Source: Agapetus fuscipes
Taxonomy: Eukaryota > Arthropoda > Insecta > Trichoptera > Glossosomatidae
DNA: 64,000 nucleotides
Assembly (NCBI GenBank): GCA_951799405.1
Contig: OX637354.1
Span: forward strand, 434,001-498,000
Direction of reading: 5' to 3'
The translations under genes and the position numbers were made by a program. Under the pieces are notes generated by a model that made no database searches, was not told the DNA's origin, and was given only the letters and a program-made list of their open reading frames with translations. How positions within the stretch are numbered: the stretch's first letter is position 1; each line of letters begins with the position of its first letter. Below are positions 3,401-63,237 of the stretch, one piece after another.

Positions 3401-6400
3401 TAGCTTAGTTGCATTGTGTACCACCTCGAGAACATTAAAAAAATGTATTTGAAAAACTCAAATTTCATGAGAATTCGATCTCAAATGGAGATACACCCGG
3501 CAACTCTTGCCGTTCTTCCCTGAAAAAGGGGTGACATTGGCAAAGTAAACCATTTTACATTATGGGTGGTCAGCCGCATACTAACCTACAAGTCAAGGAA
3601 CAAGAAATAAAAAATCTTAAAACACGATAATTGGTGTTATGGCCGAGGGATCAAGTGGCTGATCTTTCTAACGTATTTGGAACGGAATATAACGCTGGTT
3701 CAATTCCCGCTTGGGTCATTAGACCATAACTTTGATCCTGGTTCAACAGATGGCATTGGGTAATTATTACTAAATTAATAATTCATTGAAAATATACAAT
3801 TATGAATTATTAATTGATGATAAACCTGTTTTTGGCCAGGCAGAATAGATTGGTGAATTGAATTTCTCTTCACAAATCTATTTGAAAAAAAAGACACATA
3901 GGTCCAGTACACATACAAACATTGCTCATGTGAAATTACCTGTGATGGGCATAAGCCAAACAAGCACTACGGGAACGAAAGCAAAGAACAAATGTAATTT
4001 TGCCTGGAAGAAGATCGGTGGCAGCGTTGAGACATCGAATGTTCCTTTTTTCTTCACCGGCAGCACGATATGGAATCCCTTGCTCGCGCTGTTGCTGGTC
4101 TTCAGTGGGAGTCCGTACTGCTGGGAGAGCTGGTTGACAGTCTCCTGGATGTCCGTGATCAGCTCCGAGTAAGACCTCCTCGCCACGTCCAGGAGACCGT
4201 TGATCTCCGGCCGGACAGCAAAGCAGCGCTGCATGTGTGAGGAGCCACCGCGACTAGCTGTGACGCCATCTTGCAAGACACGCTTGATGCGGGAGAGGAT
4301 CTCTGCGTACTTGGGATTTTCTAGATCCTGAATGAAAACAAATAGATAGAAATAAATGGCGGTTGATCTGTAATGTTGGCGACTAGGGTTTATTGAATTG
4401 ATTTTTTTTTTCTGTTTTAGTTTTGATGTCCATAGATATTATTATTTATTGATTTATTAAATGTAATTTGTCGTGTATGTTCCTTGACTCATAGGTTGGT
4501 ATGCGGCTGACCACCGATGCTGTAAAAATGGTTCACTTTGCCAATGTCACCCCTGTTTCAGGGAAGGACGGCCAGAGTTGCATACCAGAGTTGTATGTCC
4601 ATTTGAGATTTGGTTTTTATGTTTCTACCATAATCTAGAACAAGCAAGAATCTTTCGTACCTATAAATACGAGAAAAGATTATGTGGGACAGACAGAGTC
4701 GCTTAGATCTTTGTATCGCAAACACCTGTAGGCAGAAAACATTTCAACATTTTTGTTTTCGGAAAAAATATGCATCTTTTGAATGTGTGTCTTAGTGAAT
4801 CTTACTGAATAAATAGTAAGGAAGGGGGCATATAGGGGGCCCCGAGCTTTTCCCCTTACCAGGGCCCCAGATGGCTTAATCCGAACCTGAATTATCCACT
4901 CAATTCAGAGATGTCGCACCTTTTTGACGTCGCTGAACCACAGCCCTGTTGCAGGTTGCAGAGCTGTGATTAATGCTGGCAGCAGTTCCATCGTAGCCTT
5001 GAGCTGCAGCGTGTGGCTCAGCTGCGCCTCCCCAGCGCGGCCGCCATCTTGCTGCGGCAGCTTCACGCAGAGCAGCAGCACCTTCTCCACGTCAGATAGC
5101 TGGCGCATCACATTCTGGACACATATACGTGATGTAGTCAAGCAGGATAGAGCGGGACAGTGAGAAATAATAATAATAACAATAGGATTTTTTATTTGGT
5201 GAGCGCTGTTTTTGTGTGTATCACACCTCAAGAGCCCTGTGCGAGCTTGGTCGTCGCTGTAGAAAGGGCCAATTCTCAAGCAAGACCCAGTTGTTGTAAG
5301 GTTGAATGAACCTTCAGTGACCGGTCTTTGGTAAAGGTTTATGAATTTTTCAACCCAGCGAAGAGCACATTCGAAATATAAATGGTATATTTTTGTGCTC
5401 CGCCGGGATCCGAATCCACAACCTTCCATTTACGAGTCCGAAGTGTTGCCACAACGGACTACGGACCGGTCCAAGATGCCAACGACACGCGGTGTACCTG
5501 AGCGGTTACCCATCCAAGCACTGACCACGCCCAATGTTGCTTAACTTCGGTGATCTATGGGAACCGGTGCTTTCAACATGGTAACGTCGTTGACATACAA
5601 ATTGATGATATGACATAGAAAATTACACATGACATGACATTGACCTTGCTGCAGTACGGCCGGCCATTGGCCCAGTCGGTTACGCAGACTTTGTTGCTAC
5701 AAAATCAAATTTCTCCGCTTTTGAGCGATTTTGCGCTTCGTTTTGCCAAGCTGCATCCGCAGCGGATTCACAGTAATCCTGTCCTTAGATTTAAATTATT
5801 ATTATTTCGTATTATGTGTATCATTCTTCACGCTACTCGTGATCTAGCAACAATGCCACAAGGAGTGCCACCCGAGGTATGCTATTAGCTTCAGTAACAT
5901 CGAACTATTCACTTTTAGAGTCATGGGCACGCCTCTGACCTAGAGGTTCTTGTTTTGTCGTGCCGTTGCTTTTACTTCACGGGGAGGCTTTTCGCCACTT
6001 GACAAAATATATAGCTTTGCATGAGCATCCATGTGCTGTGGGTACTTCTGACACATACATACAGAACGGGTACGAGGAGGGTTTGAGCATACATGACATG
6101 ACGAAACATGACAAAGCATCACTATGACAAAACATCACTATGACAAAACATCACTATGACAAAACAATACAAGGGCCAAACGTCACATATCTCAAACAGA
6201 GCATACCATAAACGGCACATGAAAAAACATCACATGACAAAATACCCAACATAAATATTTATCTTCTTTCCACCCGCCTTGTGCGAGTCTTTCGAGGACA
6301 ACGCGGTAAGCAGTTGCTCTTTATGTGAAATTTTAAAGGAAATTTAATCTTCTAGGTGATGGTATTTTTTATAAATTTTTAAAATAAAATACTAAGGTAC

Positions 6401-9400
6401 GAATTTTGAACCAAAAACGGGAACTGCCGTAAAGTTTTTTGAAAAATGCTCTGAAACTACAGCAGATACCAAGAATATGTAAGAGATTATTATTGTATAA
6501 AAAGTTATGTTTTTATATTTGACGTACAAAAATATCATATTTTCTATTTTGTTATTGAGTTATAAAATATATTGTAAAAAATAACATTTTACCCCCTTTT
6601 CTCCTGAGCAAGAAGGGTTGGAAATACAAATTTGTAGTATGTTTATCCTCTTATTACAAGTAATGTATGTAGTATCATATTTTTTTACTTTATTTCCATG
6701 GCTCATACAACTAACTTCAAAAGATCGTTTTTTATAATTTACAAAAAAATGGCCGCATTCAAAACGCTCCAGGTTTGGAATATTTTTTTTTATGCAAAAA
6801 GCAGGTAATTAATATGGATCATTAGTTTTTACTAGTCTCTGCCTGGTAGTCGATGAGGTAGTTTGCACCATTTTTTGGGCCTCTTTGAAGAGGCCGCATC
6901 CAAAACGCTCCAGGATAGGAAAAGGCAGATCTGTGAAAAAATCATGTACTCGATGCAAACTACCAGCCTGACCATGTCTCTGCCTGGTAGTCGATGAGGT
7001 AAGGTTTCATACGTCTAGCTCTTAGACTACAAGTGAAACACTAAGAGTGAAAGTTTCTATATTTTGAAGAAGCCATCTTACTTGCAGCCCCGCCATGAGT
7101 CCCTGATCGTTCTCCAGCAACTCCTCGACGCTCTCCAGGCGCGTGTTGATGGTGGTGACGTCACAGGTAGGCTGCAGGATGTTGGCGCGCAGGGTCCTCA
7201 CCCCTCCGACAGTGCTGGCGTGGTTCAGGATGGCCAGCAGGCAGCAGCCATGATGGAACTCTGTAGAGCCAGACAGGGACTCCACCAGCTCTAGGCGGAT
7301 AGCCGTCTCTACGTCTGAGGAGATGGTAATGAATGCTTTAGTGAAGCTGATGGTGGAGACGCCACAGGGAGGTTGCAGGGTCCTCACCCCTCCCGCAGTG
7401 CTGGCGTGGTTCAGGATGGCCAGCAGGCAGCAGCCATGATGGAACTCTGTAGAGCCAGACAGGGACTCCACCAGCTCTAGGCGGATAGCCGTCTCTACGT
7501 CTGAGGAGATGGTAATGAATGCTTTAGTGAAGCTGATGGTGGAGACGCCACAGGGAGGTTGCAGGGTCCTCACCCCTCCCGCAGTGCTGGCGTGGTTCAG
7601 GATGGCCAGCAGGCAGCAGCCATGATGGAACTCTGTAGAGCCAGACAGGGACTCCACCAGCTCTAGGCGGATAGCCGTCTCTACGTCTGAGGAGATGGTA
7701 ATGAACACTTTATTGAAACTGCATGGTTCGAAGAAGTAGGTTCATATTGGTAAATCATGAGCGCGGTGATTTTCAATCGTTGTCATCCCTATTTTTGTTA
7801 AATATCGTTGTGTTTTGTTTTGTTTTTATATAAATTGAAGCCGATCTTCAAAATAAATCACTTGTTCTCCTACTTCCGACTTGTAACTACTACTCTTCGC
7901 TATCCTCTGATCTTCGATCTGCTACTCTTCCTGACCATCTCTTCACTTCTTTGATAAGACAACGACCCACCGCTTTGCCCCCTGACATCGAGATTTGGAA
8001 TACTTGGAAAGGCAGCTGCCTTACAACCAGCTGACAGAGGAACAGTGAAGAGAAGACGGATCCAGTCCAACCGCGCCCGGAGAGCGTCAGCTACAAGCTG
8101 GTTGAAGTGATTTTTTTTTACAACTCACCTATGACTGTGGAATTCTGTGAGCCATGATACTCTATCTTCAGGGAGTGCTGAGCAAACACAACACACTGGA
8201 TGAACTCCACGTACTTCAGGACCGCAGCTGCAGCAGTCAACGCGTAAAACCTACAAGTACCAACAACATCATCAATTGGGAATGGGTTAGGATCCCAAAG
8301 GTGACAGGATAATTGACGGTGATGACAAAACATCACAAGACAAAACAACACAGAAAATACATCACCATTGCAAAATAATACATGACAAAATATCACGTAG
8401 GTACCTAAAACAGAACATAGCACAAACGGCAAATGAAAAAAACATCACTTGACTAAACATCAAAAAAGCACAAATATTTATTTTGCTTCCACACGCCCTA
8501 TGCGACTTCTTCGGGGATAACATGGTTATAAGTTGCTCTTTATGTGTAGCTAAGTAATGTTTTTTTTTATCTTATATTGACAATCAGGAACATGAATCAT
8601 TTTTTAAAAGTTTTACCAATTATTGATATATGCATGAGTTCCAATTTTTCATGTCTCACTTTTTTGTCATGCCGTTTATGGTGTTTTCTGTTTTGTGATG
8701 TTTCATCATGCGATGTTTTGTCATGTGCCGTTTATGGTGTTTTCTGTTTTAGGTACCGATGTTTTGTCATTGTGATGTTCTGACATGTGTCATTCGTTTT
8801 TTCACTGTCGTTCTATCATGGAACCGATTTCAAATACATGAGTGTGTGTGTGTTCCTTGACTTATAGGTTGGTATGCGGCTGACCACCCATGCTGTAAAA
8901 ATGGTTCACTTTGCCAATGTCACCCCTGTCTCAGGGAAGGACGGCAAGAGTTGCAGGGTGTATGTCCATTTGAGATTTGGTTTTTATGTTGTAGGTTCAC
9001 ATGAGGCATGTGCAAGCGCGAACTTGTACGTGTCTGGTTGTGAGAATGCATGTAATGTGAATCTCCAATGTAACATATCTTTGCAACTTAGATTAGATTA
9101 GATTAGATTAGAGTAAGTGAGTAGTACGAAGTATGAAATTTTTGTATTACTTATGCATCAGTTGCAGCTGCACAGAACTGTACTCCGGAAGACAGAGCTC
9201 CTTGATTTGCTGGAGTCCTGCCGTGTCCGAGAAGTGCTTCCTCTGCACCGATGTGAGAGTTATTTGAGGAAACTGGTCTCGCACCAAGCGGAAGAGCTCT
9301 GTGGGCACTGGACCACTGTTGAAGGTGTTGGGCACAATAATCTAAACGGACAATCAAGAAAACTTGGTTTAGGGCCTGTTGCACCAACCTACAATCAATG

Positions 9401-11289
9401 TTTGATTGACGTATCAAATTTGATTGTTTAATTCTGGTAAGGACCTCGGTTAAATATTTCTCAGAAGTGGGTTATAATATGATGGAATTCGAACAGGAAA
9501 GATGATGTAGATCAGCTGGTTTACGTATATGCGACCAATTTTTTGATTTGTTGGGAGAAATCACACTTAATTTTGATTTTTGTCTGATTGGAGTTTGGTG
9601 CAACTGGCTCTTAATGAAGTCTTCACTTATTCGAGATAGGAAAAATCGCAAAAAACAGGCGGCTGACGATGGATTAGAGAATGTTGGTACACAATGGCAT
9701 ATTGTTACCGACATGATGAATGGAAGTGAGACATGAACTACGAGTGATAGTGAAATGAGTAAAGGATGAACGGTGGAAATAAAACACTTGAGGAGTATCA
9801 CAGAAAAATCTTTAAGAGATAGAGTTAGAAATAAAAGGTGAAAGACAACAAATGCAAGTTGAAAAAAGGTTGTCAAATTAAAATACATTATAATGTGATG
9901 AGATGGTTTGGCGAAAGAATTTATGATGAAAGAGTTGCAAAGTTCGATGTTACTGAAGCTCATAATGTGCCTGACAGGAAAACTGAAGAAAGTATGTAGA
10001 TTATGCTGACCTCAACAGGCTTGAAGAAGTGCACCTTGGTGAGAGAGTGCAGATAGGAGTGAGAGTCGCTGAGCTGGCAGAGCACCAGGCGTGGACGCCG
10101 CAGGTCTATGGCAGCCATGCCTACCTCTCCTCGTGCTGCACCACGACCTTCTGATATAGCTGTCAACAAACATAACCTCAACAGGCTGGAAGAAGTGCAC
10201 CTTGGTGAGAGAGTGCAGATAGGAGTGAGAGTCGCTGAGCTGGCAGAGCACCAGGCGTGGACGCCGCAGGTCTATGGCAGCCATGCCTACCTCTCCTCGT
10301 GCTGCACCACGACCTTCTGATATAGCTGTCAACAAACATAACCTCAACAGGCTGGAAGAAGTGCACCTTGGTGAGAGAGTGCAGATAGGAGTGAGAGTCG
10401 CTGAGCTGGCAGAGCACCAGGCGTGGACGCCGCAGGTCTATGGCAGCCATGCCTACCTCTCCTCGTGCTGCACCACGACCTTCTGATATAGCTGTCAACA
10501 AACATAACTTCAACAGGCTGGAAGAAGTGCACCTTGGTGAGAGAGTGCAGATAGGAGTGAGAGTCGCTAAGCTGGCAGAGCACCAGGCGTGGACGCCGCA
10601 GGTCTATGGCAGCCATGCCTACCTCTCCTCGTGCTGCACCACGACCTTCTGATATAGCTGTCAACAAACATAACTTCAACAGGCTGGAAGAAGTGAACCT
10701 TGGTGAGAGAGTGCAGATAGGAATGCGAGTCGCTGAGCTGGCGGAGAGAAGACAGTATGTCCCCCTTGGTGCTTATTTGGCGTATCTGTTATTTGATTCA
10801 AAGAAGACCTTTCCATTGAGAATCACATTCTACACAATCTGATAAAAAAAGTAAATAAATCAATTTCCCGTTTTTATAAGACGCATTCGTTCAACCCACA
10901 TACAATGATACAAACATTGATCATATCAGAAAGATGACCTACTAGGTCGAAAACGTTCGTAATTTGTTTAAAGATTTTAATCTTTTTAAATAAATTTACC
11001 CGTGAAAATAAACAGTGTTTTTTAATTCATCAAAAAAATTAAATTGATCATATCCATCAGGGACAGAAGACAAACAAGCACTTAGGGGACGATGCTACCA
11101 CCTCACCGGTTATCTCATATTTTTGGGACATCTCAGAACCAGCCAAAAAATAAACAACCCTATTTTACCACAGCATCCGGATAAAGTATTGTCTTGAAAA
11201 CACTTACCAAGGATGATGCAGGATTCGTTGGATGTCAGATTGCTGGGGGTAGAGCAAGGAGTTGTGTGAGATCTACTGTCACTTATCAT
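323..11289 (-). CDS. MSH4: MSH4, MutS homologue 4 (5' part of gene, 11 coding exons)
   Basis: MSH4 pairs with MSH5 to form a meiotic clamp that stabilises recombination intermediates and promotes crossovers in the nucleus; unlike MSH2/3/6 it does not repair mismatches. Eleven exons can be joined with compatible phases into 574 codons that follow the family order: connector domain (about residues 28-181), core and clamp domains (182-540), and the start of the ATPase domain with Walker A GPNMGGKT at 553-560. Exons are 11208-11289, 10011-10159, 9151-9341, 8129-8250, 7082-7314, 4920-5114, 4004-4327, 2498-2601, 1766-1868, 831-947 and 323-424. The long variable N-terminus of vertebrate MSH4 is nearly absent. 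There is no mismatch-recognition domain I, as expected for MSH4. Walker B and the C-terminus lie off the left edge. No stop or frameshift was found, so it looks functional, apart from exon duplications described separately. Confidence 0.93.
831..947 (-). CDS. MSH4: MSH4 coding exon 10
   Basis: Thirty-nine codons, [20 protein letters not shown] to VVPNDV (residues 502-540). YVRP and the ATHPMLE stretch mark the approach to the ATPase domain. The acceptor is tgtcgtcag and the donor GTG|gtaagc. Confidence 0.92.
1114..1232 (-). mobile_element. MITE, AGCGCTATTC terminal-repeat family, partial
   Basis: Ends in gaatagcgct and contains the inner block cacagtacaccttatttttg, shared in reverse orientation with 26936-27118 and 33690-33782. 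Only one terminus is preserved. Confidence 0.7.
1766..1868 (-). CDS. MSH4: MSH4 coding exon 9
   Basis: Encodes [20 protein letters not shown] to LDVLLSLAQ (residues 467-501). The acceptor is tgttttaag and the donor CAG|gtgaat. The LDVLLSLA block is the conserved end of the MutS core lever. Confidence 0.92.
1895..2465 (-). mobile_element. LINE-B 3' end, degraded ORF2 C-terminus
   Basis: Minus-strand remnant of a LINE ORF2 C-terminal region with the CCCCTAGTGGAACGG 3' terminus and a (GTAACA)n tail on the right-hand side of its own strand. It is a diverged relative of the copies at 20997 and 23275. Located in the MSH4 intron between exons 8 and 9. Confidence 0.65.
2498..2601 (-). CDS. MSH4: MSH4 coding exon 8
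   Basis: Begins [19 protein letters not shown] and ends LTEILTMSN plus AC (residues 433-466 plus a split Thr). The acceptor is cttgtccag and the donor AC|gtaact. It joins exon 7 in phase 0 and exon 9 through the split codon. Confidence 0.88.
2657..2775. mobile_element. MITE, CGTCCCCTTAGTGCTTG family, partial
   Basis: Shares GATTCAAAGATGACC and CACATTCTACACAATCTGAG with the complete copies at 34466 and 53290. The right end is missing. Confidence 0.65.
2779..2945 (-). mobile_element. LINE-F fragment (CR1/L2-like ORF2 C-terminus)
   Basis: Same sequence as 12880-13050: on the minus strand it encodes the PVGVRAN-type C-terminal motif of CR1/L2-like ORF2, followed by a (TGA)n-rich tail. Confidence 0.6.
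2950..3385 (+). mobile_element. SINE-C with a 150-bp insertion
   Basis: A tRNA-like head (GTTATGGCCGAGGGATCAAG, then B box GGTTCGATCCCCGC) resembles a class II (Leu/Ser-type) tRNA. The body ends GGCCAGGCAGAACAGG and CTCTTCACAAATATATT. The body is split by foreign DNA between about 3143 and 3297, flanked by repeats of TTAATTGATAATATT. Confidence 0.8.
3143..3297 (+). mobile_element. Short repeat with hammerhead-like hairpin
   Basis: Contains CTGAGGATGCC, a T-rich loop, GGCGAAAAC, then an A-rich stretch and AACAGTATATTT. A similar layout occurs at 10936-11035 and 40555-40650. It sits inside SINE-C. Confidence 0.45.
3633..3884 (+). mobile_element. SINE-C copy
   Basis: Head TGTTATGGCCGAGGGATCAA, B box region GGTTCAATTCCCGC, palindromic AT-rich middle (AATTAATAATTCATT and its near reverse) and the tail ending CTTCACAAATCTATT. 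It lies in the MSH4 intron between exons 7 and 8. Confidence 0.85.
3890..3977 (+). mobile_element. MITE right end, CGTCCCCTTAGTGCTTG family
   Basis: Ends AACAAGCACTACGGGAACG, the terminal repeat of the family. It abuts the GC-type donor of MSH4 exon 7. Confidence 0.7.
4004..4327 (-). CDS. MSH4: MSH4 coding exon 7, with GC donor
   Basis: One hundred and eight codons, [20 protein letters not shown] to LPPIFFQ (residues 325-432). It contains the clamp segments [13 protein letters not shown] and [13 protein letters not shown], typical of MSH4. The acceptor is ttttcattcag. The donor reads CAG|gcaaaa: the reading frame and homology end at this GC, so this looks like a GC-AG intron. A MITE end lies about 25 bases into the intron. 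Confidence 0.9.
4353..4640 (+). mobile_element. LINE-A 3' end
   Basis: Begins with the last ORF2 codons (GGTTGATCTGTAATGTTGGC) and continues into the 3'UTR with CCTTGACTCATAGGTTGGT and CACCCCTGTTTCAGGG. It begins only about 25 bp upstream (gene sense) of the exon 7 acceptor. Confidence 0.8.
4920..5114 (-). CDS. MSH4: MSH4 coding exon 6
   Basis: Sixty-five codons, [20 protein letters not shown] to WFSDVKK (residues 260-324), part of the MutS lever/core. The acceptor is atgtgtccag and the donor AAG|gtgcga, both phase 0. The [18 protein letters not shown] helix matches the family. Confidence 0.92.
5167..5594 (-). mobile_element. 5S rRNA-SINE-B dimeric SINE, copy 1
   Basis: On the minus strand a 117-nt 5S rRNA-like head (5594 to 5478) is followed after a short linker by the SINE-B tRNA-like head, its body (GGTTGAAAAATTCATAAACC, GAGAATTGGC) and a (TTA)n-type tail at 5167-5180. 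The same order and junction occur at two other loci. It lies in the MSH4 intron between exons 5 and 6. Confidence 0.88.
5478..5594 (-). ncRNA. 5S rRNA-derived SINE head, copy 1
   Basis: The minus strand reads GTCAACGACGTTACCATGTT, then GATCACCGAAGTTAAGCAAC, then GGATGGGTAACCGCT, and ends CACCGCGTGTCGTTGGC. This is nearly the full 5S rRNA length and matches its internal control region. Substitutions and direct fusion to SINE-B show that it is not a functional rRNA gene. Confidence 0.9.
6090..6345. mobile_element. Foldback-type element, partial
   Basis: Repeats of ATGACAAAACATCACT are followed by a SINE-A tail-like block (GTGCGAGTCTTTCGAGGACA to TTGCTCTTTATGTG). It has the same layout as the left half of the elements at 8290-8825 and 42150-42665, but no right arm is visible. 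Confidence 0.6.
6745..7005. repeat. Local direct repeats in MSH4 intron
   Basis: GTCTCTGCCTGGTAGTCGAT occurs near 6835 and 6978, and GGCCGCAT followed by CAAAACGCTCCAGG occurs near 6752 and 6890. The period is about 140 bp. No coding content was seen. Confidence 0.6.
7082..7314 (-). CDS. MSH4: MSH4 coding exon 5
   Basis: Encodes [14 protein letters not shown] through [13 protein letters not shown] to [10 protein letters not shown] (residues 182-259), the start of the MutS core. The acceptor is catctcctcag and the donor CAA|gtaaga. The two tandem units upstream (starts 7500 and 7686) repeat the acceptor and the first half of the exon without a stop, so splicing to either would add 62 or 124 codons in frame. 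Confidence 0.9.
7130..7707 (-). repeat. MSH4: 186-bp tandem triplication of MSH4 exon 5 start
   Basis: The acceptor-exon junction occurs at 7314, 7500 and 7686, an exact 186-bp period. Units 2 and 3 contain the intron end, the acceptor and the first part of the exon. They lack the RANI segment and diverge after GGVRTL. As 186 is a multiple of three and no stop is present, all three units form one open frame on the minus strand. Confidence 0.93.
7708..8128. other. MSH4 intron 4, no recognised feature
   Basis: The stretch includes a locally GC-richer part at about 7980-8100 (CAACCGCGCCCGGAGAGCGT) without a convincing open frame. I see no known repeat in it. Confidence 0.4.
8129..8250 (-). CDS. 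MSH4: MSH4 coding exon 4
   Basis: Encodes [19 protein letters not shown] and on to [10 protein letters not shown] (residues 141-181). The VLKYVEFIQ block is diagnostic for MSH4. The acceptor is ggtacttgtag and the donor ATAG|gtgagt. The split codon completes as Asp with exon 5. Confidence 0.93.
8290..8825. mobile_element. Foldback element with minisatellite arms and SINE-A tail core
   Basis: The left arm is a degenerate array of GACAAAACATCAC-like units. The right arm (8640-8815) is its reverse complement (GTTTTGTCATG units). Specific paired blocks include GTACCTAAAACAGAA on the left and TTCTGTTTTAGGTAC on the right. The core, 8470-8550, resembles the SINE-A 3' tail (GCGACTTCTTCGGGGATAAC). 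Confidence 0.75.
8846..9113 (+). mobile_element. LINE-A 3' end with (GATTA)n tail
   Basis: A near full-length LINE-A 3'UTR from TTCCTTGACTTATAGG through CACCCCTGTCTCAGGG to TTGCAACTTAGATTAGATTA. The pentanucleotide tail marks the 3' end. It is inserted in the MSH4 intron, 3' of exon 3. Confidence 0.85.
9151..9341 (-). CDS. MSH4: MSH4 coding exon 3
   Basis: Starts [10 protein letters not shown], includes [20 protein letters not shown] and ends QLQLMH plus two bases (residues 78-140). The acceptor is tccgtttag and the donor AA|gtaata. It matches the MSH4 connector segment that carries the conserved IQRKYF-type motif. A LINE-A fragment with a (GATTA)n tail ends 40 bases downstream of the donor. 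Confidence 0.92.
10011..10159 (-). CDS. MSH4: MSH4 coding exon 2 (copy nearest exon 3)
   Basis: 149 nt encoding [19 protein letters not shown] and on to KVHFFKPVE, the first strongly conserved MSH4 segment (residues 28-77). The acceptor is ttgttgacag and the donor GAG|gtcagc. It is the gene-distal member of a tandem array in which three more near-identical complete copies and one 3' partial copy lie upstream. This copy alone has gtcagc rather than gttatg at its donor. Confidence 0.85.
10177..10325 (-). CDS. MSH4: MSH4 exon 2, duplicate copy 2
   Basis: A second complete 149-nt copy of exon 2 with its own acceptor and a GAG|gttatg donor. Only 17 nt separate it from copy 1, too short for an intron, and the 166-nt unit breaks frame on read-through. 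It could therefore serve only as an alternative to copy 1, not in addition to it. Confidence 0.6.
10343..10491 (-). CDS. MSH4: MSH4 exon 2, duplicate copy 3
   Basis: Third complete copy of the 149-nt exon at the same 166-bp period, with the same acceptor. The coding sequence is intact. Confidence 0.6.
10509..10657 (-). CDS. MSH4: MSH4 exon 2, duplicate copy 4
   Basis: Fourth complete copy. It has a synonymous CTC to CTT change in the QLSDSH segment, and its donor reads GAA|gttatg. It is nearest to exon 1 among the complete copies. Confidence 0.6.
10675..10748 (-). pseudogene. MSH4: MSH4 exon 2, 3' partial copy 5
   Basis: Only the last half of exon 2 (from [15 protein letters not shown]) is present. 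Homology stops abruptly near 10748, with a pyrimidine-rich ctccgccag just before it, so the outer duplication breakpoint lies inside the exon. It lacks the 5' half of the exon. Confidence 0.7.
10780..11090. mobile_element. MITE (CGTCCCC family) interrupted by hammerhead-like repeat
   Basis: MITE blocks ATCACATTCTACACAATCTG and the right end AACAAGCACTTAGGGGACG flank a 100-bp insert (about 10930-11035) with AGATGACCTACTAGGTCGAAA and AAACAGTGTTTTTTAATT. It lies in MSH4 intron 1. Confidence 0.6.
11208..11289 (-). CDS. MSH4: MSH4 coding exon 1
   Basis: Twenty-seven codons plus one base, beginning [10 protein letters not shown] and ending SCIIL, then donor G|gtaagt. The split codon joins exon 2 to give the SCIILAISEGRG stretch that aligns with the start of conserved MSH4 sequence. 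The ATG at 11289-11287 is the first Met. A good acceptor (tttttatag) ends just 2 bases upstream, so an upstream 5'UTR or coding exon is possible. Confidence 0.8.
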
Positions 11290-11778
11290 ACCTATAAAAA
11301 CAATAGGTTACGAGTCAGGTAATAAGGCAGGGCTTCAGGATTATTGTGATTGGCTAAGGAACATAAAAGCAGCTGTCATTCTTTGTTTGGAAAAGTATCC
11401 TGAAACTATTTATAATCCAAGTCGTAAAGATGTAAAGCTATAAAAATATCCCTGATGACGGCGGGGTCTCATGGGGCTTAATTATAGTTGGATGCTTTTC
11501 CTTCCCTTACTCACTTCTCTCCCCCCATTCCTTTTCCTTCCTTACTGATGTTGTTGATAATTTGTTTTTTTGCTCCGCAGTATTGCTTTTTTTCACTTTT
11601 TCATTGTTTATCTGAGAATGACCTTTCGGAGAATTTTTGTCGCACAACGTAATTTTTGCAAACTTTGCTGGTTTTTTAATTATTTCAATTATGCTTTTTG
11701 TACCAAGATGAATCATATTAAAACTGTTTGTTTGCTATTTAAATTAAGTAAATAAAAAATAAAGATTAATTAACATAG
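11290..11778. other. Upstream flank of MSH4
   Basis: AT-rich sequence 5' of the first recognised MSH4 exon. It would hold the 5'UTR and promoter, but no core promoter motif can be assigned with confidence. Confidence 0.3.
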
Positions 11779-24400: not shown

Positions 24401-27400
24401 CAAGAGCCCTCTGCGAGCTTGGTCGTCGCTGTAGAAAGCGCCAATTCTCAAGCAAGACCCAGTTGTTGTAACGTTGGATGGACCTTTCAGTGACCGGTCT
24501 TTGGTAAAGATTTATGAATTTTTCAACCCAGCGAAGAGCACATTTGGAAATATAAATAGAATGTTTTGTGCTCCGCCGGCATTCGAATCCACAACCTTCC
24601 ATTTACGAGTCCAAAGTGTTGCCACTAGACTACAAACCGGTCCAAGAAATGCTAACAACACGCGGTGTACCTAGCGGTCACCCATCCAAGTAGCAACCGC
24701 GCCCAATGTTGCTTAACTTCGGTGATCTGATGAGAACCGGTGCTTTCAACGTGGTATCGTCGTTGACTGATGTACACCTACTTTGCCTGGTCGGATGTCC
24801 TCATGCGAAAGCAAAAGCTTGTGTGCATGCAATGGCATCTGTTGAACCAGGGTCGAAGTTATGGTCAAAGGGGCCAAGCGTGATTCTAATCAGCGGTATT
24901 CTGTTCCAAATACGCTCGTCAAGAATAGCGACTTGACTTCCTTGACCATTACACTAACTATTATTCTACATGTTTCTGTTGAATTATAGGTTGGTATGAG
25001 GCTGACCCCCCATGCTGTAAAAAAACGGCAAAAGTTGCACGGATTGTGTTCATTTGATGTTTGGTTTTATATTTGTAAGTACACATGTAACTGACAAGGT
25101 GTCTGTTTGTGGGCATGCAATATGAATTGTAAATATTAATATATCTTTGCAACTTAGATTATAGATTATGTATATTTTGTTGTTGGCCGCTATTGCCCGT
25201 ATGACGAAAATCTATAAACAAAAAAAAAAACACTTGTTTGTTTAAGTTGACAAACTAAACAAGGCTCGAGTTTGTTTGTTTGCTTTGTAGAGATTTGTTT
25301 AATTGCTCAATGCTCCACGGACTCTCCAAGTGAGAGGGAACAAGAAACAAACAAAGTTGGAATGAGAAGATGGCGGGAAACAAAGGGAAGAAGTGAAAAA
25401 GAAACGGAAAAGTGATAAATGAAAATGGGAAAGCTTAAATAAATATCTATATGCGTGTGTGGTTATAAACTTGGAAAAAAATATTACGAAATGAATCGCA
25501 TTTATGTAGTTTTTTTACTTTTAAACATGATTTCAAATTATATATTCCGGTTGATAGCTCAGTTGGTAGAGTGCTTGGATTCCATGCCGTGAGCTCGGGT
25601 TCGAATTCCACCGAGGGTGTCAGAAATGATTTCCCGTTTCAGTGTTTAATTCAAACCCCAAAATAAAATACCGGCCAGGTTTCCTCAGTCTTCACAAGAA
25701 ATGAGTACCAGCCCTCTCGCGAGCTGGGAAACCTCCACTTCAACTGAAGTGGCTGGTGTAAGGCCAGCCCCCTTAGCTGTAAAAATAAATAGATTCAACT
25801 CGCCACATGCGACCACTTTGGGGATAACGCGGCAAGAAGTTACACTATTTGTGTAGCTTACTTGCGTTTTTTTTATATACGTAGAATTCTTTAATGTATT
25901 ATCTAAGTTGCAAAGATATATTGTCATGCTCATATTTAATGCATGCCCAAAAGCAGACACACGCTGCATGTCTACATACAAAATGAAAAAAAAAACCTCA
26001 CAGGAATATAAAACGCGACTAAGCTACACATATAGTGTAACTTATTACCTGCGTTATCTCTGAAGGGGTCGCATGTGGCGATTCAGGACCAACTTATTTG
26101 TACGGGTAAGGGGGCCGGCCTCAACACCAACCACTTTCAGTTGAAGAGCGGGTTTCCCAGCTCCCGGGGGCGGGCACGTTCTCATTTCTTGTGAAGGCTA
26201 AGCAAGCCTCGGGATCGAACCCTTGCTCTCGGCATGGAATGCAAGCATATTACCAATTAAGGGCCTTTACAATGACACACTGTCATAAAAGGGACTATAT
26301 AATTTTGGGTTAATAATAAAAATAATAAGCTATCGACCGGACTTTTTTACGAGCTTGGTCGTCGCTACAAAGCGCCAATACTCAGCGGTGGGATCTGACT
26401 ATTTAACTTCATTGTAGAGAATTTGCCGTAAATAGGTAGAGGATGTTTACACAGATGTCAGATGATAAGAACGATTCTTAGTACGGACGATCACAAGATA
26501 TGCAACTTGGCTAGTATTGAAGTTTTTCAATCCCGCTAAAAGTTTTCAAGTGTTGCAATATGCCAGAAGTATATATTATTCTCTATCGACTACATACTAA
26601 ATCTAAGCTGCAAAGATATGTATCATTTGAGATTCATATTGAATGCATTCCCACAAGCAGACATGCATAATTTCGCGCTTACATATGTCGCATGTGGACC
26701 TACAATATAAAAAACCCAATCTCAAATGAACATACCCTGCAACTCTGGCCGACCTTCCCTGAAGCAGGGGTGACATTGGCAAAGTGAACCATTTTTTACA
26801 GTATGGGTGGTCAGCCGCATACCAACCTATCAGTCAAGGACGATACGAACATAATAGAATGTACATGGGTGCTATCTGCATGTTTGAAAAAAAATTGACC
26901 GGCTAATATATTTTCCTTATCACTACCTTGACCAGAAGCGCTATTCTGCTAAATTCCTTACGACCTTAAGGCGATGAGCTAGCGATTCGTATCCAAAAAT
27001 AAGATGTACTGTGATTTTTTTTATCTATGAAGTTCTTTCGCAAGCGCTAGCGCTAGTTTTGAACACGAATCGCCAGATCGTCGCCTTAAGGTCGTAAGTA
27101 ATTTATCAGAATAGCGCATCAGTCCGTAGTCTAGTGGTAGCACTTCGGACTCGTAAATGGAAGATTGTGGGCTCGAATCCTGGCGGAGCACAAAAAATGT
27201 CATTTATATTTTAAAATATGCGTCTACGCTGGGTTGAAATTTTTTAGTTACTTTGCCAAAGATTGGTCACCGTAGGTCCATCCAGCCTTACATCAACTGG
27301 GTCTTGCTTGAGAATTGGCGCTTTCAACCAAGTTCGCAGAGGTATCGACCGGGCTACTGCAGCTCGTAATCGGCAGGTAATAACACTATTAGGATGATTT

Positions 27401-31496: not shown

Positions 31497-31738
31497 ATCT
31501 AATTTAAATCTAAATCTAAGTTGCAAAGATATGTATCATTTGAGATTCATATTAAATGCATTCCCACAAGCAGACACGCATAATTTCGCGCTCACACCTA
31601 CAATATAAAAAATCCAATCTCAAATGAACATAAGCCCTGCAACTCTTGCCGACCTTCCCTGAAACAGAGGTGGCATTGCCAAAGTTAACCATTTTTTACA
31701 GTATGGGGCTCAGCCTCATACCAACCTATAAGTCAAGG
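31497..31738 (-). mobile_element. LINE-A 3' end
   Basis: A TCTAAATCTAATTTAAATCTA tail-like start, then the full 3'UTR to ACCAACCTATAAGTCAAGGA on the minus strand. Confidence 0.8.
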
Positions 31739-31739
31739 A

Positions 31740-32140
31740 TATCGACCGATGTAAAAATAATGTTTGAAATTAGAAGCCAGAATTAGATAAAAAAAATTAC
31801 GCAGACAGGATTTGGGTTTGAATTTTAAATTTTAGGGTCCACGGCGCAGACTGCGTAGGACAACACACAATCTCCCGCAATTATTACGACCTCCACCAGC
31901 TGTTTATGACAGTTGGGTTTTAGCTTTTCGCGGGCCGGGATAAATTTAGCACAACTTCAAACAACACAACGGCCTGTGAGCAAACAATAATGAGCAGCGC
32001 GAGAAATATAAATTATTGTCTAAATAAAACTAAATCAGTTAATTTATGGGTTAAACTGAAACTCACGATCTAAGTTAAGCATGATCTTAAATGAAATACT
32101 GTAAGGACCATAAGGGATTTAAAAAAAAAAAAAAGTAGAC
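31740..32140. other. Spacer, no feature seen
   Basis: Contains a locally GC-rich part (31835-31985) without a credible open frame or RNA. Confidence 0.4.
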
Positions 32141-32144
32141 ATAG

Positions 32145-33340
32145 TACGGTCGATAGTTCAGTGGGTAGAGCGCTTAAATTTCATGCCGAGAGCTCGGGTT
32201 CGAATCTCAGAAATGTCATGTGTTTTTTTAAACAAAAAGTAGGAACAGTACGGTCGATAGCTCAGTGGGTAAAGCGCTTACATTCCATGCTGAGAGCTCA
32301 GGTTCGAATCTCAGAAATGTCATGTGTTTGTTTAAACAAAAAGTAGGAACAGTACGGTCGATAGCTCAGTGGGTAAAGCGCTTACATTCCATGCTGAGAG
32401 CTCAGGTTCGAATCTCAGAAATGTTATGTGTTTTTTTAAAAGTAGGAACAGTACGGTCGATAGCTCAGTGGGTAAAGCGCTTACATTCCATGCTGAGAGC
32501 TCAGGTTCGAATCTCAGAAATGTCATTTGTTTGTTTAAACAAAAAGTAGGAACAGTACGGTCGATAGCTCAGTGGGTAAAGCGCTTACATTCCATGCTGA
32601 GAGCTCAGGTTCGAATCTCAGAAATGTCATGTGTTTGTTTAAACAAAAAGTAGGAACAGTACGGTCGATAGCTCAGTGGGTAAAGCGCTTACATTCCATG
32701 CTGAGAGCTCAGGTTCGAATCTCAGAAATGTCATGTGTTTGTTTAAACAAAAAGTAGGAACAGTACGGTCGATAGCTCAGTGGGTAAAGCGCTTACATTC
32801 CATGCTGAGAGCTCAGGTTCGAATCTCAGAAATGTCATGTGTTTTTTTAAAAGTAGGAACAGTACGGTCGATAGCTCAGTGGGTAAAGCGCTTACATTCC
32901 ATGCTGAGAGCTCAGGTTCGAATCTCAGAAATGTCATGTGTTTGTTTAAACAAAAAGTAGGAACAGTACGGTCGATAGCTCAGTGGGTAAAGCGCTTACA
33001 TTCCATGCTGAGAGCTCAGGTTCGAATCCCAGAAATGTCATGTGTTTTTTTAAAAGTAGGAACAGTACGGTCGATAGCTCAGTGGGTAAAGCGCTTACAT
33101 TCCATGCTGAGAGCTCAGGTTCGAATCCCAGAAATGTCATGTGTTTTTTTAAAAGTAGGAACAGTACGGTCGATAGCTCAGTGGGTAAAGCGCTTACATT
33201 CCATGCTGAGAGCTCAGGTTCGAATCCCAGAAATGTCATGTGTTTTTTTTAAGCAAAAAGTAGGAACAGTACGGTCGATAGCTCAGTGGGTAGAGCGCTA
33301 ACATTCCATGCTGAGAGCTCAGGTTCGAATCACAGAAATG
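32145..33340 (+). repeat. Twelve tandem tRNA-like SINE-A heads
   Basis: Units start (GGTCGATAG) at 32148, 32252, 32356, 32455, 32559, 32663, 32767, 32866, 32970, 33069, 33168 and 33273. Periods are 104, 99 or 105 bp. Each unit has A box TAGCTCAGTGGGTAAAGCG (the first and last have TAGAGCG) and B box GGTTCGAATCT or GGTTCGAATCC. The linker is either a T7-T8 run, which could stop Pol III, or TTTGTTTAAACAAA, which could not. Sequence identity among units 2 to 11 is very high. Confidence 0.95.
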
Positions 33341-33598
33341 TCATGTGTCAATGTCAGAAATGATTTCCGTTTCGGTGTTTATTTCAAATCCAAAATAAGC
33401 ACCGACAAGGTTTACTCAGCCTTCACAAGAAATGAGAACTAGCCTTCTCAAGGGGCTGGGAAACTCCCACTTCTACTGAAGTTGTGACTTAAGACCGGCC
33501 ACCTTACATGTAAAAATATTAGGCTCCGCTCGCCACATGTGACTCCTTTGGAGATAACGCAGGGAAGAAATTACATTATGCGTGTAGATTAGTTGCGA
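33273..33598 (+). mobile_element. SINE-A body following the head array
   Basis: Head 12 continues into GTCAGAAATGATTTCCG, the CTCAGCCTTCACAAGAAATG body and a GATAACGCAGGGAAGAAATT tail, so the array is an expanded 5' end of one SINE-A. The body is more diverged than the heads. Confidence 0.85.
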
Positions 33599-33689: not shown

Positions 33690-33782
33690 TATTCTGCTAA
33701 ATTCTTATGACTTTAAGGCGACGAGATAGCGATTTGTGTCCAAAAATAAGGTGTACTGTGAAATTTTGCAGAATAGCGCTTC
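33690..33782. mobile_element. MITE, AGCGCTATTC family, short
   Basis: GTGCTATTCTGCTAAATTCT and GCAGAATAGCGCTTC are inverted termini. The inner block ATAAGGTGTACTGTGA is shared with 1114-1232. It is internally deleted relative to 26936-27118. Confidence 0.78.
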
Positions 33783-42149: not shown

Positions 42150-42665
42150 ATAAAGTTCCATCATAGAACGACACAGTGACAAAACGACACATAAAATAAC
42201 GACACATGACAGAAAGACACGTGAGAAAACACCACTATGACAAAACATCACAGGAAAGTACATCAAACGACAAAATATCACAAAATACCTCGTGACAAAA
42301 CATCGCATACTTAAAACGGCACATGAAAAAACAAGCAACCCAAACGACACGAACATTTATTTTGCTTCCACACGCCATATGCGACTTCTTCGGGGATAAC
42401 ATGGTAAAAAATTGCTCTGTATGTGCAGTTTAATTTTTTTCTGTTTTGTGATGTTTTGTACGTGTGTTCTTTGTCATAATGGTGGATTTTCAGTATTGTT
42501 TTGTCAAAGTGACGTTTTGTCATGTAATGTACTGTCATCTGTCGTTTGTTATGTGTCATTCTTTCATGTTTCGTTCTGTCATGTGTTATTCTGTTACGTG
42601 TCGTTCTGTTGTGTGTCATTTTGTCATATGCCGTTTTGTCACTGTGCTGTTGTTAAGCTCTGAAA
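42150..42665. mobile_element. Foldback element with minisatellite arms and SINE-A tail core, copy 2
   Basis: Left arm of GACAAAACGACAC-like units (from CATCATAGAACGACACAGTG), right arm of GTTTTGTC and GTCGTTCTGT-like units (to CGTTTTGTCACTGTGCTG). The core 42358-42420 matches the SINE-A tail (TGCGACTTCTTCGGGGATAA). Same architecture as 8290-8825. Confidence 0.75.
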
Positions 42666-47797: not shown

Positions 47798-47838
47798 TTA
47801 GTAACTTTAACTTTCGTGGAAAACTAACGTGGAAATTA

Positions 47839-59977: not shown

Positions 59978-60590
59978 ATGCCCACAAGAGGCCAAACGAG
60001 CGCGGACAAGATGGTGGAAGGGCTCGAAAGCCTCACCTCCATCATCTCGGAGTTAAAAGCGACAGTGGAGGCCCAAAATAATGTTATCAATGAACTTTGT
60101 GCCAAAATTATTAAATTAGAAATTGTTATGGAGGGAGAAGCTACCGCAGCAGCAACAGAAGCAGCCGCAGCAGCAACAGAAGCAGCCGCAGCAGGAACAG
60201 AAACAGCCGCAGCAGCAACAGAAGCAGCCGCAGCAGCAACAGAAGCAGCTACTACAAAAACGACCACCTCAACCGTCATCCGAACCTCAATGGCAAGTCC
60301 AGAGAACCAGACGTACACGCCGTCAAACGATGCTTCAGGGGACTGCTTCCACATCGGACCTGACAGCAATCATCGCCACCAGAAGTCTTCATGCCTGGAG
60401 ATTTGCCAAGGGCACTACCCAGCAGCAAGTCCAGGACTACGTGAAGACCAAGTGCGGTCTTGTTGTGGAGGCACTGCCTCTAGTGAATAAGGGCGAATAT
60501 ATGTCCTACAGGATTGTCGTGCAAGAAGATGGCTGGGACAGGGTGTTCAACCCAGATGTATCTCTCTCTCTCTCGCGGAGGGGGGGTGTT
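59978..60590 (+). pseudogene. LINE ORF1 (gag-like), frameshifted and truncated
   Basis: Starts MPTRGQTSADKMVEGLESLT, followed by a coiled-coil (SIISELKATVEAQNNVINEL). A 21-bp minisatellite follows (ACAGAAGCAGCCGCAGCAGCA-type units, 60148-60253). The C-terminal part continues in the next frame as TRSLHAWRFAKGTTQQQVQD and MSYRIVVQEDGWDRVFNPDV, a domain typical of jockey/CR1 ORF1 proteins. A length change in the minisatellite probably caused the shift. The normal ORF1 end is missing. Confidence 0.72.
60148..60253 (+). repeat. 21-bp minisatellite within LINE ORF1
   Basis: Five units of about 21 bp, CAACAGAAGCAGCCGCAGCA plus G. It codes for Ala/Glu/Thr-rich or Gln/Pro-rich peptide depending on frame. 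Confidence 0.85.
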
Positions 60591-63237
60591 CCTCGCTGTC
60601 AAAAATGCACTGGCCTCTCAAAGGCCGACAGACTTGGAGACTAGCGGGGAACACCTCTGGATCAGAATAATTGTCAATCATTCTCCCATTTTTGTATGTG
60701 TTCTTTATTTTCCATGCAGGGATGGCGAGGAAGATAGACAACTTTTTTATAATTTCATGGATATGAACTCAGTTGTACTGAGAAACCGCAGTTGTATTAT
60801 TCTAGGAGACTTTAACATGACCAGTATTAGCGACTCTGCAATACTGGAATACTCATGTTTCTTAGAGAGCAACTGCCTTACTCAGTACAACTGTGTTAAA
60901 AATACTTATGATAAAATGTTAGATTTAGTACTATGTAATGACAAATTAAAATGTAATGTGGTTAGATGTGTAGAGCCGTTGGTGTATGAAGATCGTCACC
61001 ACCCAACGCTCTCTGTGTCGGTGCATCTGCGGGGTGCGCCTCTGCACAATAGTCCGGCGCATCGCACGCACACACGCGCGCACACACAGACAACCAACAC
61101 GACTGATCATGATATTAATTTTAAATACCTAGACCTAATTAGATGTAGCGATATTCTTAATAATTATGATTTCAGTGTACTTTATAATTTGAACAATGCT
61201 AATAATGCGGTTACTTATTTTTATAATGTGTTATTTAAGATTTTTTCTCTGTGTGCTCCTAAAAAAAAGAGAGTTAATTACCAAAGTAGGACTTACCCAG
61301 CATGGTTCACACGGGATATTATTGATGATATAAAATGCAAACAGCGCTTACATAACAAATACCGGAAGAATAACACACCTCAAATTTTTTCTGAATTCTG
61401 TCAAAAGCGCGCTCAATTGAAAAAAGATATCCTGAATGCTCGTAAGTCCTACCTTGATAAAATTCAGTCCGGGATCGGAAGTGGTTCTAGGGAATTTTGG
61501 AAGTATGTCACATCGGTTAGAAAAGATGGTGACTCGTTCCCTACACTGATGGATGGAGACCTTATAACAACTGATCCTCAATCAGTCTGTGAAAGGTTCT
61601 CAGAATACTTTCAGTCCGTCTACAGCTCTCAGATCCCCGAAATAGATGTGGAATCCATGCTTAATAAACTGCCACTATGCAATACGAATAATATCAGCAT
61701 AGATCTGTTCACATTGGATGAGGTACAATCTTGCTTAGTTGGCATAAATCCTAACAAAGCAGCAGGTCCTGATAATATTCCACCAAAAGTCATCTTGGCA
61801 ATTTCTAAATCTATAGCAAAACCCTTAACATTTATTCTAAATTTATGTATAGAAAAATGCACTTTTCCGCAAATTTGGAAACTCACCAAAGTCATTCCTA
61901 TACATAAATCTGATTCAAAAACAGATGTTCATAACTATAGACCAATCTCTATACTATCAACATTTGCTAAAATATTTGAAAGTTTGATTCATAAGAATCT
62001 ACTTGAAAATATTAAATCCCGTATCACTATTCATCAACATGGCTTCCTGCCAAAAAGATCTACTGTCTCTCATCTTCTAACTATTAGTAAAGACGTAGCA
62101 TCTAATCTGGATTCTCAGCTCCAGACAGATGTAGTGTATACGGATTTCTCTAAAGCATTTGATCAGGTAGATCACGATATTCTTCTTGAGAAAATGCACA
62201 TACTGGGATTCTCCAAATCCCTGTTATTATTCTTTGCCTCCTATCTAAGGAACAGGCAACAGTACGTCAACATTAATGGTTTTTCCTTAAACACCTTTCA
62301 ACCGTTCTCAGGCGTTCCACAAGGATCAAATTTGGGTCCTTTGGCGTTTATTATTTTCATTAATGACATAATTGATCATCTTAAACACAGCTCTTGTCTC
62401 CTTTATGCAGACGATCTAAAGATTTATGTGAAAGTCGTAGATACTCACGACTGCATAAATCTACAAGAAGATTTAGATGCATTAGCAGCTTGGGCTGAGA
62501 AAAACAAGCTCATCTTTAATTCAAAGAAATGTGTCTCAATGTCCTTTAGTAAATCTTTTAGACCCATCTTGCATGAGTACAGTATTGGTGGGCAATTATT
62601 GTCTCGTGTAGAATCAATACGGGATCTGGGAGTTGTTTTTGATCCAGGACTGAGCTTCTCTAGCCATATAGCGCAGCTGACTACTAAGTGCTACCAGCTT
62701 CTGGGACTGGTGATCAGAGTGTGTAAACTGCTCACTGAGCCCAGAGCAATGGTGGACGTATTTAGCTGCGTTATACGGTCCAAACTGGAATACGCTGTTG
62801 AGGTGTGGACGCCTCATCAGCAAAAATATATCAATATGTTGGAACAAATCCAAAAGAAATTCCTGAGGTACCTCCTCATGAGGATACGTGGAAATTATCC
62901 GCAATATATGCATCATGAGGAGCTACTTCGGGAAACAGGTTTCAGAAGCCTGGAAACCAGGCGCAACGGGTTCCTTATGGTGCTCTCTCATAAAGTCATC
63001 AACGGCTTAATAGACAGTCCCACCCTGTTGGAGAGCTATAGGTTCTATGTGCCAGACGACTACAACCGTGGGCGAGGGCATAATTTATTTTATGTACCGA
63101 AAAGCCGTACAGATGTCGTCGCACAGCATCCTGTAACTCGGAGTATAAAACTGTTAAATGACTCTAATATAGATATATTCTACTGCAATATAAATAGATT
63201 TAAAATTTTAATCAGAGATTTTCTCCCAGCGTGTTGA
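60514..63237 (+). CDS. LINE ORF2: partial endonuclease and reverse transcriptase
   Basis: A 907-codon open frame. Residues from about 18 onward are the second half of an APE-type endonuclease (GGGVFLAVKNAL; LGDFN with the catalytic Asp at 99; RHHPTLSV near the end of the domain). The RT domain follows: NKAAGPDNIPP, VYTDFSKAFDQVDHD (catalytic Asp at 544), SGVPQGSNLGPLAF, and YADD at 631-634. The C-terminal tail ends RDFLPAC. The endonuclease N-terminal catalytic residues are missing, so target nicking should be impaired although the RT is intact. It copies its own RNA into DNA in the nucleus. Family: jockey/CR1 superfamily by motif pattern, exact clade unsure. Confidence 0.88.
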   Translation: MSCKKMAGTGCSTQMYLSLSRGGGVFLAVKNALASQRPTDLETSGEHLWIRIIVNHSPIFVCVLYFPCRDGEEDRQLFYNFMDMNSVVLRNRSCIILGDFNMTSISDSAILEYSCFLESNCLTQYNCVKNTYDKMLDLVLCNDKLKCNVVRCVEPLVYEDRHHPTLSVSVHLRGAPLHNSPAHRTHTRAHTQTTNTTDHDINFKYLDLIRCSDILNNYDFSVLYNLNNANNAVTYFYNVLFKIFSLCAPKKKRVNYQSRTYPAWFTRDIIDDIKCKQRLHNKYRKNNTPQIFSEFCQKRAQLKKDILNARKSYLDKIQSGIGSGSREFWKYVTSVRKDGDSFPTLMDGDLITTDPQSVCERFSEYFQSVYSSQIPEIDVESMLNKLPLCNTNNISIDLFTLDEVQSCLVGINPNKAAGPDNIPPKVILAISKSIAKPLTFILNLCIEKCTFPQIWKLTKVIPIHKSDSKTDVHNYRPISILSTFAKIFESLIHKNLLENIKSRITIHQHGFLPKRSTVSHLLTISKDVASNLDSQLQTDVVYTDFSKAFDQVDHDILLEKMHILGFSKSLLLFFASYLRNRQQYVNINGFSLNTFQPFSGVPQGSNLGPLAFIIFINDIIDHLKHSSCLLYADDLKIYVKVVDTHDCINLQEDLDALAAWAEKNKLIFNSKKCVSMSFSKSFRPILHEYSIGGQLLSRVESIRDLGVVFDPGLSFSSHIAQLTTKCYQLLGLVIRVCKLLTEPRAMVDVFSCVIRSKLEYAVEVWTPHQQKYINMLEQIQKKFLRYLLMRIRGNYPQYMHHEELLRETGFRSLETRRNGFLMVLSHKVINGLIDSPTLLESYRFYVPDDYNRGRGHNLFYVPKSRTDVVAQHPVTRSIKLLNDSNIDIFYCNINRFKILIRDFLPAC

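What the first reader, a model, noticed from the sequence alone, without database searches (positions are those of the whole stretch)
32145..33598. A SINE with twelve tandem tRNA-like heads
Seen: twelve head units of 99-105 bp, each with A and B boxes, stand in front of one SINE-A body. Some linkers carry T7 or T8 (units 1, 3, 7, 9, 10, 11) and the others read TTTGTTTAAACAAA, so predicted Pol III products would be one to several heads long. Units 2 to 11 are nearly identical and the body is more diverged, so the heads were homogenised or expanded recently. Inference: a satellite born from a SINE promoter, or a source of tRNA-like small RNAs.
Basis: partly seen in the sequence, partly recalled or inferred. 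Interest (0 to 1): 0.88.

Follow-up and report, generated by a model that had tools for sequence, protein, structure and literature searches.

The report
Tandem array from a SINE head
The promoter part of one old short retrotransposon (a SINE) was copied in tandem to twelve units, making a small local satellite; similar SINE-born tandem repeats are known in reptiles, and nothing here shows that this one is transcribed or does anything.

Summary
The array is real in the sequence. Twelve units (99, 104 or 105 bp, from 32148) precede one SINE body ending near 33597. Each unit has A-box and B-box matches 43 nt apart; only units 9-11 have the full 11-nt B box. Six of 11 linkers carry T7 or T8; five read TTTGTTTAAACAAA, a perfect palindrome.

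(1) Against a consensus from eight window copies, head and body of the array copy are about equally diverged (12.9%, 15.1%), and all 12 heads share four changes, three absent from the 11 other heads aligned. So one copy was duplicated in place. (2) The linker resembles the DNA just upstream of unit 1, so the duplicated block was flank plus head; the T runs sit at that junction. (3) None of 12 other head matches in the window has a second head, while four other tandem duplications of 90-186 bp occur there.

I read it as a nascent SINE-derived satellite, as described in squamates (PMC10702118). No tRNA fold was found. Pol III RNAs of one to four heads are possible but untested. The genome search did not complete (13 tries), so other arrays and assembly correctness stay open.

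The parts
32118..32147 (+). 5' flank of unit 1 (TTT, A14, GTAGACATAGTAC), likely source of the linker; the last about 5 bases may belong to the SINE's 5' end
   Evidence: Aligns with the linkers; apart from short A-rich matches the flank after about 31739 matches nothing else in the window
32148..32251 (+). Unit 1, 104 bp, most diverged head, followed by T7
   Evidence: 6-7 differences of 75 from the other units; T7 at 32223
32252..33272 (+). Units 2-11, near-identical heads with linkers; T7 at 32431, 32842, 33045, 33144 and T8 at 33243; palindromic linkers after units 2, 4, 5, 6, 8
   Evidence: 0-2 differences of 75; T runs; palindrome
33273..33349 (+). Unit 12, the head joined to the body; spacer CAGAAATGTCATGTGTCAATG in place of the usual CCACCGAGGGTG
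33350..33597 (+). SINE-A body, the only one in the array; 3' end TTGCG followed by AAATATC
   Evidence: BLAST to other window copies, 73.9-83.4% over nearly the whole body; 3' ends compared

Best explanation
A nascent SINE-derived satellite. A block of about 104-106 bp, made of some 25-30 bp of the 5' flank plus the head of one old SINE-A copy, was duplicated in tandem. An early stage with few units aged (unit 1 lacks two changes shared by units 2-12); later, unequal exchange or replication slippage multiplied the inner units to ten near-identical copies, leaving the end units diverged. The T7/T8 runs lie where the head's ATGTGT meets the flank's TTTAAA, with extra Ts, so they are probably by-products of the junction. 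As a side effect each unit is a potential compact Pol III unit: A box, B box and, in six cases, a terminator. Shown: anatomy, shared changes, divergences, flank-like linker, no internal T4 in the consensus. Inferred: order and mechanism of duplication, and any transcription.
For: All 12 heads share four changes against the consensus; three of them (bases 16, 24, 29) are in 0 of the 11 other heads aligned. All share the spacer CAGAAATGTCATGT, absent from the other copies. The linker matches the flank of unit 1 at 10 of 13 bases next to the head and is found nowhere else in the window. Inner units differ by a mean 0.87 of 75 while the copy's body is 15.1% from consensus. The ends are more diverged than the middle. 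Four other tandem arrays of period 90-186 bp are in the window. The consensus has no run of four Ts except at its end.
Against: The fourth shared change (base 42) is also in 4 of the 11 other heads, and the array body shares bases with a second group of copies, so part of the divergence may be subfamily difference, not decay. The body's 15.1% lies inside the range of the other copies (3.6-21.4%). A simple junction would give T4, not T7. One locus only; no empty site and no clear target-site duplication for the array copy.
Confidence: 0.76

Rival explanations
1. Assembly artefact: the true locus has one or a few heads and the assembler multiplied them.
For: Several near-identical tandem arrays occur in one window, two at 98% matches.
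Against: Units have private differences (1, 3, 4, 11, 12), three lengths, and C at base 60 only in units 9-11. No reads could be examined.
Confidence: 0.1
2. A mobile SINE subfamily with several heads and this linker, of which this is one copy.
For: The three private head changes and the altered head-body spacer could mark a subfamily.
Against: 0 of 12 other head matches in the window has a second head; nearest two are 667 bp apart. T7/T8 runs would stop most head transcripts before the body. The linker resembles the local flank. The rest of the genome could not be searched.
Confidence: 0.08
3. Head-only Pol III RNAs ended at T7 were reverse transcribed and inserted again and again at the same A-rich site.
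For: T7 directly follows heads and an A-rich stretch lies beside them.
Against: Each unit carries the flank-like AAAAAGTAGGAAC, upstream of the expected Pol III start (start position is recalled knowledge), so single-head RNAs should lack it. Five linkers have no T4.
Confidence: 0.04
4. A selected array that makes functional Pol III RNAs of one to four heads.
For: A and B boxes kept in 12 of 12 units; six terminators.
Against: Recent copying alone keeps the boxes. No stable fold, no RNA family, full B box in 3 of 12.
Confidence: 0.04

Closest known systems
SINE-derived satellites (sSat1-3) of squamate reptiles, PMC10702118 (read: abstract, Background, parts 1 and 2 of 3 of Results, Discussion)
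   Same: Tandem units cut from part of a tRNA-headed SINE, with a longer terminal unit that runs to the SINE's end; some units include about 30 nt of unknown origin or the tRNA part; short arrays at single loci; sub-variants that alternate.
   Different: Here the host appears to be an arthropod, the unit holds both promoter boxes plus flank-like DNA, and six linkers have T7/T8. Only one locus is known, and it lies near genes; a subtelomeric place could not be tested.
Amphibian Pol III tandem repeats (newt PolIII/TAN, Xenopus OAX, Rana/polIII, Hydromantes Hy/polIII), as described in PMC10702118 Background; Hydromantes and Xenopus also in a table of PMC9659126 (passages)
   Same: Tandem repeats with a tRNA-like Pol III region.
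   Different: Units of about 200-360 nt for three of them; PMC10702118 judges their SINE origin unproven, while here the parent SINE body is still attached.
Dimeric SINEs of insects: Sbg9 of Blattella germanica (PMC9191728, passages); Twin of Culex is named in PMC3272025 (passages), its double head is recalled
   Same: More than one tRNA-related part in an element.
   Different: They are dispersed families copied as units; here one locus with twelve heads and no sign of mobility.

Membership tests
SINE-derived satellite (sSat) | Tandem units that match part of a known dispersed SINE | tested here: met
   12 other head and 13 other body matches in the window
SINE-derived satellite (sSat) | A terminal unit that continues to the SINE's terminus | tested here: met
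   Unit 12 runs into the body to TTGCG
SINE-derived satellite (sSat) | At least four middle units | tested here: met
   Ten units between the end units
SINE-derived satellite (sSat) | Similar arrays at many loci, homogenised between loci | not tested
   The genome search was busy at 13 of 13 attempts; none in the window outside the array
tRNA-headed SINE (parent copy) | A and B boxes of a Pol III promoter | tested here: met
   full 11-nt B box in 3 of 12 units
tRNA-headed SINE (parent copy) | Target-site duplication | tested here: inconclusive
   Six copies looked at: 7-nt repeats at the ends of 2 (51629, 25548); none convincing in 4, the array copy among them
tRNA-headed SINE (parent copy) | Head recognisable as a tRNA | tested here: not met
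   No ARAGORN or Rfam tRNA match
Transcribed Pol III satellite | RNAs of about 84, 188, 292 and 396 nt | not testable with these tools
   Lengths predicted from T runs only

The most novel reading that the evidence does not exclude
A SINE-derived satellite outside vertebrates in which each monomer became a self-contained Pol III minigene, because tandem duplication of flank plus head itself created a T7 terminator at the junction; a later T-to-G change made a palindromic linker that abolishes termination, so the array encodes a graded set of one- to four-head RNAs. If other loci exist, this would be a route by which a SINE promoter turns into a transcribed satellite.
Probability: 0.12. Interest if true: 0.6.

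Novelty: new member of a known kind. Interest (0 to 1): 0.36.

Why it matters
It is a readable early stage of a satellite: parent SINE, first duplication, junction and later expansion are still visible at one locus. It bears on a question that the squamate study leaves open, whether SINE-born satellites occur in other animals. No function is shown.

Tried and rejected
Rejected: a tRNA-like fold. Judged unlikely: serial head-only retroposition and a mobile multi-head family (see rivals). An empty site was sought by comparing the flanks with the window; upstream of the array, after about 31739, only two short A-rich matches came up, so none was found. The spacer's 12-mer TGTCATGTGTCA recalls the 15-bp repeat at 42532-42646, but the exact 12-mer occurs once only, in the array; link dropped. 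SINE body patterns gave 0 matches in viral contigs and genome contigs, as expected for an animal SINE. I took the 166-bp array at 10009 for a second MSH4 exon by eye; a 51-aa peptide from it matched nothing in Pfam, NCBIfam or the PDB, so that reading is unproven. Paper searches that ran: (one search listed 20 of 37 papers, 20 of 940; the others listed all they found). No insect SINE-head array was seen in those listings; weak evidence, since the library is open-access only.

Full report
Setting. The window appears to come from an arthropod: a frame at 17951-18475 matches Methuselah_N (E 2.1e-12), and minus-strand frames at 7022-7741 and 3926-4438 match MutS domains III (E 5.8e-22) and IV (E 1.9e-4). 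That Methuselah receptors are typical of arthropods, and that the MutS pieces look like MSH4, is recalled. The species is unknown to me.

The array. Twelve units start at 32148 and follow at 99, 104 or 105 bp. Each has TAG(C/T)TCAGTGGG and GGTTCGAATC 43 nt apart; the 11-nt B box is complete in units 9-11 only. No such pair arose in 50 shuffles of the window. The other five linkers contain TTTGTTTAAACAAA, a perfect 14-bp palindrome; it differs from the unit 1 linker by one T-to-G change, which could be a templated correction of an imperfect palindrome (inference).

The parent. BLAST in the window (E up to 0.001) gives 12 other head matches, two of them short (31 nt at 11777, 40 nt at 26254), and 13 other body matches. 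No head match has another within 667 bp. An inverted head fragment beside the body-only copy at 21940, visible, fell below the cut-off. A consensus was made from eight single-head copies on an alignment seeded with the copy at 47838. Leave-one-out divergence of those eight is 0-12.7% in the head and 3.6-21.4% in the body (the last over 28 sites only); the array copy has 8/62 (12.9%) and 37/245 (15.1%). So its body lies within the range of the others and its head just above it.

Order of events. All 12 heads share four changes from the consensus within the first 60 bases; units 2-12 share two more that unit 1 lacks; units 2-11 share one that units 1 and 12 lack. Of the four, three (bases 16, 24, 29) are in none of the 11 other heads aligned, while base 42 is also changed to A in four of them (45976, 49645, 26254, 16762). 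The array body also shares bases with the group of 49645 and 26254, for example AGAAC for AGTAC. Hence part of the divergence may be subfamily difference, and 'already decayed when duplicated' is likely but not proven. The pattern fits an older stage with few units, then recent multiplication of inner units: mean difference among units 2-11 is 0.87 per 75 bases. The three units with C at base 60 lie side by side (chance 8/120 = 0.067), weak support for local copying.

The linker. The bases between heads resemble what lies directly upstream of unit 1 (TTT, A14, GTAGACATAGTAC against T7, AAACAAAAA, GTAGGAACAGTAC). GTAGGAACAGTAC occurs 11 times in the array and nowhere else in the window. So the duplicated block most likely ran from the flank to ATGTGT after the head. 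Joining ATGTGT to TTTAAA gives T4; the observed T7 needs three more Ts, as slippage would give (inference). The consensus has no T4 before its end. Of nine other copies examined, five have a T4 or longer only at the 3' end, one (45976) has an internal T5 and three have none; a tenth, 50769, has an internal T11.

What it could express. If Pol III starts 5 bases before the head (assumed), the first T runs give RNAs of 84 nt (units 1, 3, 7, 9, 10, 11), 188 nt (2, 6, 8), 292 nt (5) and 396 nt (4), and about 500 nt from unit 12 through the body to a T4 at 33764. The array copy lacks the T run after GCG that 5 of 7 other copies have. So a normal SINE RNA is not expected from it. No expression data were available.

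Context. Tandem Repeats Finder lists four further arrays of period 90-186 bp: 186 bp x 2.9 and 166 bp x 4.4 (98% matches each), 115 bp x 2.0 (85%) and 90 bp x 2.0 (94%). The first lies over a MutS-like frame. In the 166-bp array units 2 and 3 are identical over the 74 bases compared and the last unit differs most. Short tandem duplication is common in this window, whether biological or from assembly, so the SINE-head array needs no special cause.

Comparison. The plan matches the SINE-derived satellites of squamates. That paper also names amphibian Pol III tandem repeats whose SINE origin it judged unproven; a review table lists salamander and Xenopus satellites from tRNA-related regions. Hence a new member of a known kind, probably in a new host group. 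The paper itself leaves open whether such satellites are restricted to squamates.

Limits. The whole-genome search was busy at each of 13 attempts, so neither other arrays nor assembly quality could be tested.

Noticed in passing
7189-7727: A 186-bp unit repeated 2.9 times at 98%, open in one frame through the copies and overlapping a MutS domain III match: an exon-bearing piece of a MutS homologue duplicated in tandem.
   Followed up: partly
10009-10746: A 166-bp unit repeated 4.4 times at 98%; by eye MutS-like on the minus strand, but a 51-aa peptide from it matched no family or solved structure.
   Followed up: partly
16762, 26254 (-), 49645 (-): A second group of SINE copies with a similar head joined directly to the later part of the body; two of them, 16762 and 49645, share a longer 5' part.
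   Followed up: partly
60487-63237: Open frame of 916 codons with reverse transcriptase (E 1.2e-32) and endonuclease (E 2.7e-5) matches, a long LINE frame without a stop.
   Followed up: no
27120-27180: Another sequence with a tRNA-like promoter look (GTAGTCTAGTGGTAGC ... GGGCTCGAATCC), perhaps a different SINE.
   Followed up: no
31500-31739: A highly repeated element upstream of the array with dozens of matches in the window on both strands.
   Followed up: no
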